The translations under genes were made by a program, and so were the position numbers. 47,274 nucleotides of DNA from Mameliella sp. MMSF_3455. Lineage in GTDB: Bacteria; Pseudomonadota; Alphaproteobacteria; Rhodobacterales; Rhodobacteraceae. The stretch covers positions 1 through 47,274 of the forward strand of contig NZ_JASHJL010000041.1 in assembly GCF_030733205.1 (NCBI RefSeq), given 5' to 3'. The notes beneath the pieces were generated by a model, which was not told where the DNA came from, searched no databases, and was given only the letters and a program-made list of their open reading frames with translations. This document shows positions 16,650 through 21,603 of the stretch, one piece after another (positions within the stretch are counted from its first letter, which is position 1; each line of letters begins with the position of its first letter).

Positions 16650-16695
16650 TCCGCCCGCCCTGCGGCCCCCTGCCGCCACAGTCACGGAGCACCCC

Positions 16696-17661
16696 ATGAA
16701 CATCCAGATGATCGAGGCCGCCGCCACCCGCGCCCGCGGCATCACCCGCCGCACGCCGCTGTTGTCCTCGCCGGCGCTGGACGCCATCGCCGGGCGCCGC
16801 GTTCTGGTCAAGCCCGAGTGCCTGCAACACACCGGCAGTTTCAAGTTCCGCGGCGCCTGGTCGGCCCTGACCGCCCTGCCGGAGGACCAGCGCGCCAAGG
16901 GGGTCATCGCCTTTTCCTCGGGCAACCACGCGCAGGGGGTGGCGCTGGCCGCGCAAAAGCTGGGGGTGCCCGCGGTGATCCTGATGCCCTCGGACGCGCC
17001 CGCCGCCAAGATCGAGGGCACCCGCAGCTACGCCGCCGAGGTCGTGCTCTACGACCGCTCAACCGAAAGCCGCGAAGAGATCGGCGCCACGATTGCCGCC
17101 GACCGCGGGCTGACGCTGGTCAGGCCCTACGACGAACCGCAAGTCATCGCCGGCCAGGGCACCTGCGGGCTGGAGATCGCGGAACAGGCCGCCGAGGCGG
17201 GCGTGACAGAGGCGGACGTGCTGGTCTGTTGCGGCGGTGGCGGCCTGACCGCCGGGATCGCCCTCGCGCTGGAGGGCCGCGCGCCCGGCCTGCGCGCGCG
17301 CCCTGCCGAGCCCGAGGGCTACGATGACACCGCCCGCTCGCTGCACTCCGGCAGTCGCCAGCGCAACGCGCAAGAGGCCGGCGGGCTTTGCGACGCGATC
17401 CTGACCCCGATGCCCGGAGAGCTGACCTTTCCGATCAACGCCCGCCTTTGCGGCCCCGGCGTGGTGGTGACGGATCAGGAGGTGCTGCGCGCCATGTCCC
17501 TGGCCCTGCGCCACCTGAAGCTGGTTGCCGAACCGGGCGGCGCCGTGGCCCTGGCGGCGGCGCTCTTTCACGGCGACGAACTGGCGGGCGACGCGGTGAT
17601 CTGCACGATTTCCGGCGGCAACCTGGACCCGGCCACGCTGGCCCGCGCGCTTGCGGTCTAG
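16696..17661 (+). CDS. Threonine/serine dehydratase family PLP enzyme
   Basis: A 321-residue fold-type II PLP enzyme lacking the ACT regulatory domain, hence not the biosynthetic IlvA form. The PLP lysine is Lys50 in TGSFKFRGA; SSGNHAQGVA and the phosphate loop CCGGGGLTAG are also visible. Likely reactions are deamination of threonine or serine; serine racemase and 3-hydroxyaspartate dehydratase share this architecture and cannot be excluded. ATG 16696 follows GGAG at five bases. No gene of isoleucine synthesis is near. Confidence 0.85.
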   Translation: MNIQMIEAAATRARGITRRTPLLSSPALDAIAGRRVLVKPECLQHTGSFKFRGAWSALTALPEDQRAKGVIAFSSGNHAQGVALAAQKLGVPAVILMPSDAPAAKIEGTRSYAAEVVLYDRSTESREEIGATIAADRGLTLVRPYDEPQVIAGQGTCGLEIAEQAAEAGVTEADVLVCCGGGGLTAGIALALEGRAPGLRARPAEPEGYDDTARSLHSGSRQRNAQEAGGLCDAILTPMPGELTFPINARLCGPGVVVTDQEVLRAMSLALRHLKLVAEPGGAVALAAALFHGDELAGDAVICTISGGNLDPATLARALAV

Positions 17662-17750: not shown

Positions 17751-19838
17751 ATGTTCCGCCGCCTGATCCCTGCCGCCGCTCTCCTGCTTGCCACGCCGCT
17801 GGCCGCGCAGCAGGATCGCCTGCTTGGCTTCGACCTCGACAGCTTTGGCAAGACCGTCCTGTCGCGCAAACAGTTCGGCAGCGACGTCATCCCCGAGGCC
17901 GCCTACGGCGCTTACAACAACGAGTTCATCTCAACTTATTCCAGCCAGTCGGTCTTTGCCCGCATCGGGCGCTCCGTCGGGCGGCTGGACGTGGCGACGG
18001 ACAAGGGCGTTTTTCCCTGCACCGCCTTTCTTGTCGGTGACGACATCCTGATGACCAACCACCACTGCGTGCCCGGCATCCTCGACGACAGCCGGGCCGA
18101 GGCGAAATCGATCGTCGGCGTGCGCTTCGTCATGGGCTACACGCAGGAGGGCGTGACCGAGGGCACAAGTTCCTTCCTCGTAGATCCGGTTCCGGTCGAG
18201 ACCTCGAAACCGCTGGACTATACCCTGCTGCGCATCCTGGGCGACACGCCGGGGCGCGATTTCGGCACGCTGGAACTGGCCGCCGTCACGCCACAGGACA
18301 ACGATCCCTACTGGATCATCGGCCACCCGATGGGAGAGGCGCAGCGCATCAGCCGCGAGAAATGCCGCGCCAATGCGCCCGCGCTGTCCGACAACAAGCT
18401 GCTGCACACCTGCGATACCATGCCGGGCAACTCCGGCTCTCCGGTGATCGACGCAGGCAGCCGGCAGGTGGTCGGACTGCACCACGCCGGGTCGGCCAAC
18501 AACAGCGTCAACTACGCCATCCCGATGGCGGCGATCCTTGCCGCCTCGAACCTGCTAACCCCTGCCAAGCGGTCAGCCGAACCCGACAATGCCGAGGGCC
18601 GCGCCCTGGCCCGCCTGTCCGACGCGCTGATGATCGACGACGACGACACCCGCCGCATCGCGCTGGAAACGCTGGTCTCCGAGGCGCCTGGCACCTCCGC
18701 CGCCCGCACCGCCGCCCGTTTGTTGGCGGCGCTGCAACCGGCCCCGCCGCCCGCGCCGACGCTGGAGGAACGCATGGCCGAAAACGCCGATGTGCAGGCC
18801 TGCGACCGGCTCGCCGGTGACCGCTTCCACCCCGACCGCGCGGCCGGGCTGATGCGCAGCGACGGCACGGTCTTCGAGGCCATCGACGCCAACGCCGCCA
18901 TCGCGGCCTGCCAGGCGGCACTGGACAGCTTTCCCGGCCACCCCCGCATGACCGCCTTCCTGGCCGAGGCCTTCAGCGCGGCGGAACGCTATGACGAGGC
19001 CTTTGCCGCCTACGAGGATGCCGCCCGGACCGGCGATGCCATCGGTCAGGCCGGCCTTGGCGTTGCCTATCTCTGGGGGCTTGGCACCGATAAGGACGTT
19101 TCCAAGGCCCGAGAGATGTTCGAGAAATCCGCAGACCAGGGCCACCCCATCGCCAAGACCGGGCTGGGCGTGATCTATCAGCACGGCCAGGGCGTCCCCG
19201 CCGATCCCGCCCGCGCCCTGACGCTCTATCGCGAGGGGGCAGAGGCCGGGTACCACGGCGCGCAGGACCAGTTGGGAGACCTCTACCTGGCCGGAACCAT
19301 CGTCGCGCAGTCAGACCAAACCGCCGCCTACTGGTTCGCCAAGGCCGCGGACCAGGGCAATGCCGCGGCGCAGTTCAACCTCGCGCTCCTGTACGAAAAG
19401 GGTCGTGGCGTCGACAAGTCCATGACAACCGCGGCCCGCTGGCACACCGCCGCCGCCGAACAGGGGCACGCCGAGGCACAACAGGCGCTCGGCACGCTCT
19501 ACCTCAGCGGCACCGGCGTCCCGGCATCCGATGCCAAGGCGGTCGAATGGCATCGCAAGGCGGCGGCGCAGGGCAATGCGCTTTCGCTCGCCAGCCTTGC
19601 CTGGATCACCGAGCAGGGGCGCGGCGTCCCTGCCGACCCGGCAGAGGCGGCGCGGCTCTACATAGAGACCCTGCGCGCAGGCAACGACTGGCCCGTGACC
19701 CGTGACAGCGCCGACTGGCCGCGCGACACCGCCCGCGCCCTGCAAGCGGCGCTGGCCCGCGCGGGGGTCTACGAGGGCGCCACCGACGGCCGCATCGGCC
19801 CGCGCTCACGCGAGGCGATGCGCTCGCTCCTGCCCTGA
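17751..19838 (+). CDS. Secreted trypsin-like protease with Sel1 repeats and a peptidoglycan-binding-like end
   Basis: A 695-residue exported protein. Signal peptide 1-19 (MFRRLIPAAALLLATPLAAQ). Residues about 70-265 form a trypsin-like domain with intact triad His105 (TNHHC), Asp156 (LDYTLL) and Ser228 (GNSGSPV). A linker region with VQACDRLAGD and AIAACQAAL follows (about 345-425), then about six Sel1/TPR-like repeats (about 428-645; e.g. GVIYQHGQGVPADPARAL), and a final segment resembling a peptidoglycan-binding domain (YEGATDGRIGPRSREAM). Sel1 repeats suggest partner binding, the tail anchoring at the cell wall. ATG 17751 has GGGAGAG. The gene right after encodes a catalytically dead paralogue of the protease domain. 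Confidence 0.85.
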   Translation: MFRRLIPAAALLLATPLAAQQDRLLGFDLDSFGKTVLSRKQFGSDVIPEAAYGAYNNEFISTYSSQSVFARIGRSVGRLDVATDKGVFPCTAFLVGDDILMTNHHCVPGILDDSRAEAKSIVGVRFVMGYTQEGVTEGTSSFLVDPVPVETSKPLDYTLLRILGDTPGRDFGTLELAAVTPQDNDPYWIIGHPMGEAQRISREKCRANAPALSDNKLLHTCDTMPGNSGSPVIDAGSRQVVGLHHAGSANNSVNYAIPMAAILAASNLLTPAKRSAEPDNAEGRALARLSDALMIDDDDTRRIALETLVSEAPGTSAARTAARLLAALQPAPPPAPTLEERMAENADVQACDRLAGDRFHPDRAAGLMRSDGTVFEAIDANAAIAACQAALDSFPGHPRMTAFLAEAFSAAERYDEAFAAYEDAARTGDAIGQAGLGVAYLWGLGTDKDVSKAREMFEKSADQGHPIAKTGLGVIYQHGQGVPADPARALTLYREGAEAGYHGAQDQLGDLYLAGTIVAQSDQTAAYWFAKAADQGNAAAQFNLALLYEKGRGVDKSMTTAARWHTAAAEQGHAEAQQALGTLYLSGTGVPASDAKAVEWHRKAAAQGNALSLASLAWITEQGRGVPADPAEAARLYIETLRAGNDWPVTRDSADWPRDTARALQAALARAGVYEGATDGRIGPRSREAMRSLLP

Positions 19839-19918
19839 CGCCCGGCACAGCCCGCCTTGCCCCCCTGTCCTTCCCCCGCGTACGAAGGTGCGAGAACGCG
19901 AAACAGGACCCAAATCCG

Positions 19919-20755
19919 ATGATCCGATCCTTGCTCACCGCCCTGGCGGCAACCTGTCTTCTGGCCGGCCCCGCCGCGTCCCAATACGAAAACATCTTTC
20001 CAACCGAAAGCTTCGGGAACATCGTCCTGCCCCTACCGCTCTGGGCGCAGCGCGATCAGGGCGATCATGGCGAAGGGTACCAGCCTTTCGGAATGTCCGA
20101 AGTCGACCGGGTCGCGCGTTACGGCAAGACCTCAACGCTCGCGCAGGCCGGGCGCCCGGTCGGTCGACTGGATGTCAGCACCGGTACCGGCGTCCTGTCC
20201 TGCACGGGGTTTCTCGTCACCGCGGATCTGCTGCTGACCACCGCGAACTGCGCCAAAGGCACCCCTCGCCGGAGCGGCAAGAACACAGAGGTCGAGGCCA
20301 TCCGTTTCACCCTTGGCTACCTGGACGAAACAGACCCCGAAAGCGCCGAAGCCTTCGAGGTCGATACAGCCCCGGTCGAAATCGACGAGGCCCTGAATTA
20401 TGCGGTTCTCAGGGTCACGTCGGGCCAGCCCGGAGAGCGCTATGGGACCCTTGCGCTTGACCCCACAGCCCCGGGTGAGCAACAGTTCCTCCGGCTCTTC
20501 GGGCATCCTTTCGGGTATTCCCAGCATGTCGCCCGCACGGACTGTTGGACAGCCACCCCTGCGCTGCTGGACGGGAATCTGCGGCACACCTGCGATACCC
20601 TGCCCGGAAACCAGGGCTCGCCGCTTGTAGGCGCTTTCGAAAACCGGGTGATCGGCCTGCAGCTCAGCGGGTTCAGTAAGAGCATCGAACACGCGATCCC
20701 GATAGGCCGCATCCTCGAAAGTTCCAGCGTTCTCAAGCCTGCGGATCAGGACTGA
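19919..20755 (+). CDS. Secreted pseudoprotease, paralogue of the preceding protease domain
   Basis: A 278-residue trypsin-fold protein with a signal peptide (1-21). It aligns with the protease domain of the previous gene (VGRLDV, CTGFLV, HTCDTLPGN), but all three catalytic residues are replaced: Asn110 where His is expected (TTANC against TNHHC), Asn160 for Asp (LNYAVL against LDYTLL) and Gln232 for Ser (GNQGSP against GNSGSP). The cysteines and the rest of the core are kept and the frame is open, so it looks like a maintained non-catalytic protein rather than decay. It lacks the Sel1 and tail domains. It starts 80 bases after its neighbour. A role as inhibitor, decoy or substrate-capture partner is inferred. 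Confidence 0.82.
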   Translation: MIRSLLTALAATCLLAGPAASQYENIFPTESFGNIVLPLPLWAQRDQGDHGEGYQPFGMSEVDRVARYGKTSTLAQAGRPVGRLDVSTGTGVLSCTGFLVTADLLLTTANCAKGTPRRSGKNTEVEAIRFTLGYLDETDPESAEAFEVDTAPVEIDEALNYAVLRVTSGQPGERYGTLALDPTAPGEQQFLRLFGHPFGYSQHVARTDCWTATPALLDGNLRHTCDTLPGNQGSPLVGAFENRVIGLQLSGFSKSIEHAIPIGRILESSSVLKPADQD

Positions 20756-20761
20756 TACCGG

Positions 20762-20938
20762 TCAGTCCAGCCGCCGCGCCTCGTCCTGTAACATCACCGG
20801 GATGCCGTCGCGGATCGGATAGGCCAGCCCGGCAGCCGTGCTGACCAGTTCCTGCCGGTCCACGTCATAGCGCAGGCCCGTCTGCGTCACCGGGCAGATC
20901 AGCGCTTCCAGCATTCGCCGGTCGAATTCAACGCTCAT
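20762..20938 (-). CDS. Trm112-like small zinc-ribbon-type protein
   Basis: A 58-residue protein: [48 protein letters not shown]. This is the bacterial Trm112 family pattern (YcaR-like); partners in other organisms are methyltransferases. Only one cysteine of the usual zinc set is left (ICPVTQ), as in many bacterial members. The ATG at 20938 overlaps the stop of the LON-domain gene as ATGA, so the two are coupled. It ends six bases from the convergent pseudoprotease stop. Confidence 0.85.
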
Positions 20939-21576
20939 TGGATCAGATCCTCCTCGCCGCCGCGCAGCGCATATTCGATCAATGTCACCAGCGTCTCGCG
21001 CCGCGTGCTCAGCGAGGGCGCCTCCAGGAGCGCCTGCTTGTCCTCTGGGTTGAAGTCCAGCAGCATCGACAGCGAGTTCACCAGCAATTCGTCATCCGCC
21101 TGCTGCAGCGTGTCCCAGTCGGCCGACAGATCCTTGGCCGCAAAGTAGCGGTCCAGCAGGTCCAGGAAACGCACCCGTTCGAAACGCTGGTCGGTCTCGG
21201 TGCCTTGCTGGTCGCGCTCGAACCCGTCCCAGTTGACCTCGCAACAGCGGTAGGGCGTGAACCCCTGGACCTCATGCGTGATGCGAAAGCGCGAGATACC
21301 GGTCAGCGTGATCATGTAACGCCCGTCCTCGGTTTCCGAGAACTGCGTCACGCGTCCGGCACAGCCGATGCGGTGCAGGCCCCGCTCCTCGCGGCCAGGA
21401 ACCTGGTGCGGTTGGATCATGCCGATCAGCCGGGTTTCCGTCTTCAGGCAGTCGTCAAGCATCGCGAGATAGCGCGGCTCGAAGATGTGAAGCGGCAGGC
21501 GCGCCCGCGGTAGCAGGAGCGCGCCCGGCAGGGGAAAAACCGGGATCTTCCCCGGCAGGTCTTTGAGCCGTGTCAT
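20935..21576 (-). CDS. LON peptidase substrate-binding-domain protein
   Basis: A 213-residue protein consisting of the Lon N-terminal (PUA-like) domain without ATPase or protease parts: [30 protein letters not shown] at the start is diagnostic. Function of such stand-alone proteins is unknown; substrate or adaptor binding is a reasonable guess. ATG 21576 is taken as start; a TTG three codons upstream is possible and neither has a good ribosome site, so coupling to cnoX 27 bases upstream is likely. Confidence 0.88.
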
Positions 21577-21603
21577 GCTCGACAAGGTAGACTGCGCGAC
21601 CGG

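What the first reader, a model, noticed from the sequence alone, without database searches (positions are those of the whole stretch)
17751..20755. Tandem secreted protease and catalytically dead paralogue
The first gene carries an intact trypsin triad (His105, Asp156, Ser228) joined to Sel1 repeats and a peptidoglycan-binding-like end. The second is a shorter secreted paralogue in which exactly these three positions are Asn110, Asn160 and Gln232, while flanking motifs, cysteine positions and the open frame are kept. Loss of all three residues without frame damage suggests selection for a non-catalytic role: inhibitor, substrate trap, chaperone or immunity-like partner of the active enzyme. 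This could be a two-part cell-surface system not yet described.
Basis: partly seen in the sequence, partly recalled or inferred. Interest (0 to 1): 0.7.

Follow-up and report, generated by a model that had tools for sequence, protein, structure and literature searches.

The report
Secreted protease with dead twin
A marine bacterium carries, right behind a gene for a secreted protein-cutting enzyme, a shorter copy that has lost all three cutting residues yet still appears to be preserved by selection, which suggests a helper, decoy or binding role; comparable active-dead enzyme pairs are known from magnetic bacteria.

Summary
Window 17751-19838 encodes a trypsin-like (S1B, glutamyl-endopeptidase-like) domain with His105/Asp156/Ser228 plus five Sel1 repeats; its peptidoglycan-binding end is below the curated cut-off. 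Window 19919-20755 encodes a domain-only paralogue (37% identity) with Asn/Asn/Gln there. The genome is a Mameliella. The dead gene has orthologues in 2 of 5 other Mameliella genomes; all three are triad-dead (NNQ, LNE, LHQ), in frame and directly behind the active gene. dN/dS is 0.40-0.48, below 1 in 3 of 3 pairs but four to six times that of the active partner's domain. It is not an obligatory partner: two species hold an active second copy in that slot, one holds nothing, with the first protease intact. None of 392 other-genus genomes of the family matched at E 1e-58. It is not isolated: Mameliella has further in-frame dead paralogues, one beside an array of active proteases (LGS, 3 of 6 genomes) and one of about 1,100 aa (RGA/V, 6 of 6); 34 of 34 members examined in 17 genomes of other genera have the triad. 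Closest precedent: MamE/MamO. Most likely a secreted pseudoprotease with a binding or regulatory role; mechanism and partner unproven.

The parts
17751..19838 (+). P1: S1-type (Trypsin_2) protease, 695 aa, triad H105/D156/S228, five Sel1 stretches (repeat region about 414-644), sub-threshold PG_binding_1 match (661-691)
   Evidence: repeat region from a PHROGs match; nearest solved structure of the P1+P2 profile: glutamyl endopeptidase 1p3c, E 7.1e-9
17751..17810 (+). signal-peptide-like N-terminus of P1
   Evidence: read by eye; no predictor run
19839..19918 (+). 80-base gap between the two genes, without a terminator-like site; 82 and 86 bases in G001 and G005
19919..20755 (+). P2: pseudoprotease, 278 aa, domain only, N110/N160/Q232 in place of H/D/S; four cysteines, oxyanion-loop Gly230-Asn231 and Thr227 kept
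19919..19981 (+). signal-peptide-like N-terminus of P2
   Evidence: read by eye; no predictor run
16690..17661 (+). flanking gene (threonine dehydratase-like), upstream border of the slot in the window and in the five related genomes
   Evidence: name by eye from the translation
20935..21585 (-). flanking gene (LON-domain-like), downstream border of the slot in the window and in the five related genomes
   Evidence: name by eye from the translation

Best explanation
P2 is a genuine secreted pseudoprotease. SHOWN: it is a paralogue of the P1 protease domain without the Sel1 part, has lost all three catalytic residues in all three Mameliella species that carry it, stays in frame, is under purifying selection, and lies directly behind P1. 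INFERRED: it keeps a protease-shaped fold and part of the substrate cleft (oxyanion-loop Gly and Asn, four cysteines, and in part the Thr and His that correspond, by recall, to the Glu-specificity residues of V8-type enzymes) and works by binding without cutting, as an optional accessory that tunes the neighbouring active protease, either by pairing with it as MamO does with MamE or by occupying its substrates or inhibitors.
For: Triad loss in 3 of 3 orthologues, next to P1 in 3 of 3. dN/dS 0.48 (0.33-0.72), 0.41 (0.29-0.57), 0.40 (0.28-0.58). In simulated neutral drift 30, 14 and 4 of 200 runs stayed stop-free at 0.15, 0.25 and 0.5 substitutions per site. Of 72 positions near-invariant in 61 active members, P2 keeps 46 in all three orthologues, among them G226, N227, C90, C106, C205, C221; T223 is kept in 2 of 3 and H244 in 2 of 3. 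The active-site loops (40 codons) have dN/dS 0.22-0.44, not above the whole protein. The six closest active relatives of P2 are all at the P1 locus (0.42-0.44 identity), and the three closest of P3, a second dead paralogue, are the active protease beside it (0.40-0.41), while P2 and P3 are 0.34 alike: duplication plus inactivation beside an active copy seems to have happened twice. Precedent: MamO, with a degenerate triad, is needed for MamE-dependent proteolysis, and duplication with loss of the triad happened three times in the MamE family (PMC4794232, abstract and sections 8 and 11).
Against: P1 is intact without P2 in 3 of 6 genomes. dN/dS of P2 is four to six times that of the P1 domain (0.079, 0.108, 0.082), as expected also of a slowly decaying copy. 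GC3 is lower (0.75 against 0.86). The window's own P2 has Gln where the recalled specificity His lies, and the Thr is lost in G005. The margins of nearest kinship are small (P2: 0.43 to the P1 locus, 0.41 to the next group; P3: 0.40 and 0.38), and trees do not settle the origin. Only three orthologues exist in the genomes held. No sign of physical interaction was tested; structure models were too poor to use (mean pLDDT 46.9 and 40.6). Unlike MamO, P2 keeps Gly at position 193 and has no second domain.
Confidence: 0.5

Rival explanations
1. Relaxed, slowly decaying duplicate. P2 is a by-product of gene-family expansion, kept for a while by weak constraint and on its way out.
For: Found in 3 of 6 genomes of one genus only; dN/dS 0.40-0.48 against 0.08-0.11 in the partner domain; lower GC3; the same family also holds fragments or broken copies (G000:C22, G001:C22, a 242-aa copy and a copy with a TAG in G004).
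Against: Confidence intervals exclude 1 in 3 of 3 pairs; three open frames at synonymous divergence up to 0.5; active-site loops not decaying faster than the whole.
Confidence: 0.2
2. Inhibitor decoy. P2 keeps a protease-like cleft so that protease inhibitors of algae, predators or competitors bind it instead of the active enzymes.
For: Cleft positions are better kept than the triad: Gly226 3 of 3, Thr223 2 of 3, His244 2 of 3, against 0 of 3 at each triad position; domain-only form with a signal-like N-terminus; a Mameliella alba isolate supplies vitamins to a bloom alga with which its kin correlate (PMC11740886, passages).
Against: Positions 245 and 246 of the cleft strand are also lost; Gln or Glu at the serine position could hinder inhibitor loops; no inhibitor was looked for or is known here.
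Confidence: 0.13
3. New ligand-binding function unrelated to P1 (for example metal, polysaccharide or a surface), with the protease fold only a scaffold.
For: Seven catalysis-linked positions besides the triad are lost in P2, P3 and P4 alike; a pseudoprotease fused to WD40-like propellers elsewhere in the genome shows the scaffold used apart from tandem pairs; MamO binds metal (PMC4794232, abstract).
Against: The place beside P1 in 3 of 3, and of P3 beside another active array in 3 of 3, is not needed for this reading.
Confidence: 0.17

Closest known systems
MamE/MamO and inactive MamE copies of magnetotactic bacteria (PMC4794232; abstract and sections 8 and 11 seen)
   Same: Active and inactive trypsin-like paralogues in one gene island of alphaproteobacteria; degenerate triad in the inactive one; repeated origin in the family.
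   Different: Those are HtrA/Deg-branch proteases; MamO has a TauE-like second domain that MamE activation needs, a non-Gly residue at 193 and a metal site. P2 is S1B-like, a single domain, keeps Gly193; P1 carries Sel1 repeats.
Prokaryotic serine protease homologues, SPHs (survey PMC2605481; passages seen)
   Same: 42 of 966 members of five families in 91 genomes are putatively inactive; a trypsin domain with six Sel1 repeats is listed (Pelodictyon).
   Different: In the passages seen no tandem active-inactive pair is described; here a pair and several dead clades are followed across species.
Glutamyl endopeptidases (V8 type, S1B; 1p3c and others)
   Same: Best match of the P1+P2 profile and of the P2 profile (1p3c, E 0.00039); TNxHC and GNSGS motifs in P1.
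   Different: Sel1 repeats behind the domain in P1; Glu specificity of P1 untested; P2 lacks the triad.
Insect clip-domain serine protease homologues (recalled, not examined)
   Same: Catalytically dead secreted S1 proteins that act as cofactors of active proteases.
   Different: Eukaryotic, clip domain, zymogen cascade; none of it was looked for here.

Membership tests
S1 trypsin-like peptidase domain (Pfam Trypsin_2) | profile match above the curated cut-off | tested here: met
   P1 63.5 bits, P2 47.2 bits, cut-off 27.6
Active S1 peptidase (P1) | His-Asp-Ser triad | tested here: met
   H105/D156/S228
Active S1 peptidase (P2) | His-Asp-Ser triad | tested here: not met
   N/N/Q, L/N/E, L/H/Q in three species
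V8-type glutamyl endopeptidase (S1B) | sequence similarity to solved S1B enzymes | tested here: met
   profile of three P1 domains and three P2: 1p3c E 7.1e-9, V8 protease 1qy6 E 1.5e-5
V8-type glutamyl endopeptidase (S1B) | cleavage after Glu | not testable with these tools
   only the recalled specificity positions were looked at: T223 in 61 of 61 and H244 in 60 of 61 active members
Pseudoprotease | catalytic residues lost in orthologues with open frame | tested here: met
   3 of 3 orthologues
Pseudoprotease | maintained by purifying selection | tested here: met
   omega 0.40-0.48, upper 95% limits 0.57-0.72
Pseudoprotease | no proteolytic activity in vitro | not testable with these tools
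   needs an assay
MamE/MamO-type active-inactive pair | active and inactive paralogue encoded together | tested here: met
   3 of 3 P2 carriers
MamE/MamO-type active-inactive pair | non-Gly residue at position 193 of the inactive member | tested here: not met
   Gly kept in P2, 3 of 3
MamE/MamO-type active-inactive pair | TauE-like second domain on the inactive partner | tested here: not met
   P2 matches Trypsin_2/Trypsin only
MamE/MamO-type active-inactive pair | inactive partner needed for activity of the active one | not testable with these tools
   needs deletion strains

The most novel reading that the evidence does not exclude
Mameliella repeatedly turns tandem duplicates of its secreted S1B-like proteases into single-domain pseudoproteases that stay beside, and act on or shield, the active enzyme next door (P2 beside P1, P3 beside the three-protease array): a small active-dead secreted protease system, independent of MamE/MamO, perhaps used at the interface with algae.
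Probability: 0.27. Interest if true: 0.62.

Novelty: new variant of a known kind. Interest (0 to 1): 0.42.

Why it matters
Bacterial pseudoproteases with a plausible active partner are, to my knowledge, few. A genus in which one protease family has at least three dead clades among many active members, two of them side by side with active genes, gives a compact set for asking why selection keeps dead enzymes and whether active-inactive pairing, proposed for magnetosome proteases, is a more general habit.

Tried and rejected
Considered and rejected or left open: (1) sequencing error or frame artefact: the loss recurs, in frame, in two other genomes. (2) Neutral pseudogene: omega and open frames speak against it. 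(3) Essential immunity protein or chaperone of P1: P1 is intact without P2 in 3 of 6 genomes. (4) Remnant of the Sel1 part behind P2: no match in 205 bases downstream in the window, nor in 275 bases each of L068 and L069. (5) P2 as a decayed orthologue of the active second copy of G002/G003: 6 informative sites side with P1, 2 with the second copy, 13 with neither; undecided. (6) One single old loss for the dead clades: the 79-row tree puts all 13 dead rows on one side of a branch (90/91), with long branches and a warning of false joins; in a 66-row tree without P4 and the most distant rows P2 and P3 do not join (they do in 24% of bootstrap trees, which had not settled), and joining them is not rejected (3.23 log units lower, AU p 0.36). 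In 63-row trees with the other dead clades left out, P2 held with the P1-locus clade is not rejected and scores 2.56 log units above the free tree (p 0.65), P3 held with its neighbour 1.16 below (p 0.40). So the number of losses is open. (7) Phage or defence gene: P1 matches one PHROGs family through the Sel1 part and one weakly through the protease domain, and PADLOC RT-Protease models weakly through the protease domain; P2 matches none.

Led nowhere: AlphaFold models of both domains, six-row alignments (pLDDT 46.9 and 40.6), so no fold search was run; promoter and terminator scan; plasmid collection (2 weak hits); class-wide search (1 of 240 at E 1e-30, the window's own genome); the genome-contig scan used two short peptide patterns and found 2 loci, so it names relatives but proves no absence; paper searches showed no description of this pair in the listings.

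Full report
What is there. The window is contig C48 of a 5.7-Mb genome of 111 contigs, G000. Window 17751-19838 encodes P1 (695 aa) and 19919-20755 encodes P2 (278 aa) on the same strand, 80 bases apart. P1 has a Trypsin_2 domain and five Sel1 stretches; its peptidoglycan-binding-like end is below the curated cut-off (17.9 against 23 bits). P2 has the trypsin-like domain only. They align at 37% identity, and H105/D156/S228 of P1 face N110/N160/Q232 of P2. Signal peptides were judged by eye.

Orthologues and neighbourhood. In six Mameliella genomes P2 has orthologues in G001 (77% identity) and G005 (69%) besides the window. Their residues at the triad are L/N/E and L/H/Q. All three lie directly behind the P1 orthologue, and the slot is bordered by the same genes in the five other genomes. 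In G002 and G003 the second place holds another full-length protease with an intact triad; in G004 there is none. Of 394 genomes of the family searched at E 1e-58, only the window's own matched; the other 393 are G002 and 392 of other genera. That limit was set just beyond the best active relatives (E about 1e-55), so a much more diverged orthologue would be missed. The protease family itself is patchy: 11 of 120 genera, the window's included, at E 1e-12, and 1 of 240 genomes of the class, the window's own, at E 1e-30.

Selection. By the NG86 method with codon bootstraps P2 has omega 0.48, 0.41 and 0.40, with upper limits 0.72, 0.57 and 0.58; the P1 domain of the same species has 0.079, 0.108 and 0.082 (one search gives the same picture). 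Neutral drift of the P2 coding sequence left 30, 14 and 4 of 200 runs stop-free at 0.15, 0.25 and 0.5 substitutions per site. So P2 is constrained, but far less than its partner. The loops around the lost residues (40 codons) do not evolve faster than the whole (omega 0.22-0.44). GC3 is lower in P2 (0.75) than in P1 (0.86).

The dead copy is not alone. I classified every member fetched. In the six Mameliella genomes there are 65: 48 with H/D/S, 13 dead with open frame, and 4 fragments or damaged copies. The G000 members come from a wider search (E 1e-3, P1 query) than those of the other five (E 1e-10, P2 query), so the count is not even. Two of the four damaged copies, G001:C22 and the 242-aa copy of G004, print as HDS; I set them aside because of a poor serine region and truncation. 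The dead ones are P2 (3), P3 (287 aa, L/G/S, 3 genomes, directly beside an array of three active proteases), P4 (951-1111 aa, R/G/A or R/G/V, 6 of 6 genomes; the G000 copy has WD40-like propellers behind the domain) and one very divergent A/G/L gene. P3 omega is 0.30-0.40 and that of the P4 domain 0.20-0.25, each over G000, G001 and G005. At the limits used, neither P3 (E 1e-36) nor P4 (E 1e-38) showed a dead orthologue in other genera: the matches there, all fetched, have H/D/S. In 17 genomes of other genera 34 of 34 members examined have H/D/S; several of those genomes were searched only with strict limits, so they may hold more.

Origin. P2 is most like proteases of the P1 locus (group means 0.43, next group 0.41) and P3 most like the protease beside it (0.40, next 0.38), while P2 and P3 are 0.34 alike. 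This favours separate tandem duplications, by small margins. The trees do not settle it: long branches; all dead rows on one side of a branch in the largest tree (90/91); one loss for P2 and P3 not rejected (p 0.36); P2 with the P1 locus not rejected (p 0.65) and P3 with its neighbour not rejected (p 0.40).

What was lost with catalysis. Of 72 positions near-invariant in 61 active members, P2 keeps 46 and has lost 16 in all three orthologues. Leaving the triad out, seven positions (49, 55, 103, 201, 245, 246, 254) are lost in P2, P3 and P4 alike, against 1.6 expected by random choice (P about 1 in 10,000). This marks a set tied to catalysis or maturation; shared descent of the dead clades would produce part of it too. 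Kept in P2 are the four cysteines and the oxyanion-loop Gly and Asn (3 of 3); of the residues that correspond, by recall, to the Glu-specificity Thr and His of V8 protease each is kept in 2 of 3, and the window's own P2 has Gln for the His.

How it probably works. I read P2 as a secreted, non-cutting binding protein on a protease scaffold, an optional accessory to P1. The best precedent is MamO, whose degenerate protease is needed for MamE-dependent proteolysis (PMC4794232: abstract and sections 8 and 11). A decoy for inhibitors, a new ligand, or slow decay remain open. An obligatory immunity or chaperone role is unlikely, because P1 is intact without P2 in three genomes.

Known or new. Inactive serine protease homologues are an established kind (42 of 966 in PMC2605481; passages), the trypsin-Sel1 combination is listed there, and active-inactive pairing is described for magnetosome proteases. 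I saw no paper on this pair in the searches; those are listings, and only PMC4794232, PMC2605481 and PMC11740886 (passages) were opened. I file it as a new variant of a known kind.

Noticed in passing
L009:708-10019 (G000:C15, about 71-81 kb): Array of three active trypsin-like proteases with different C-terminal parts (one with PG_binding_1 above cut-off and Sel1 just below it, one with a large right-handed beta-helix region, one with nothing recognised) and a dead domain-only paralogue P3 (L/G/S) at its head; same arrangement in G001 and G005.
   Followed up: partly
L013:2230-5484 (G000:C21): Pseudoprotease domain (R/G/A) fused to WD40-like beta-propellers, 1084 aa; orthologues in 6 of 6 Mameliella genomes are dead (R/G/A or R/G/V), domain omega 0.20-0.25 over three of them.
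   Followed up: partly
L016:1572-3044 (G000:C15, about 130 kb): Very divergent member with A/G/L at the triad positions and no Pfam match at E 0.01; alignment uncertain.
   Followed up: no
L009, L010, L012, L013 (G000): One protease domain family joined to different C-terminal parts (Sel1/PG-binding, beta-helix, SH3, WD40-like, or nothing recognised) within one genome.
   Followed up: no
G004:C1:1163885-1164271 (L095): A family member interrupted by a TAG stop, seen as two pieces.
   Followed up: no
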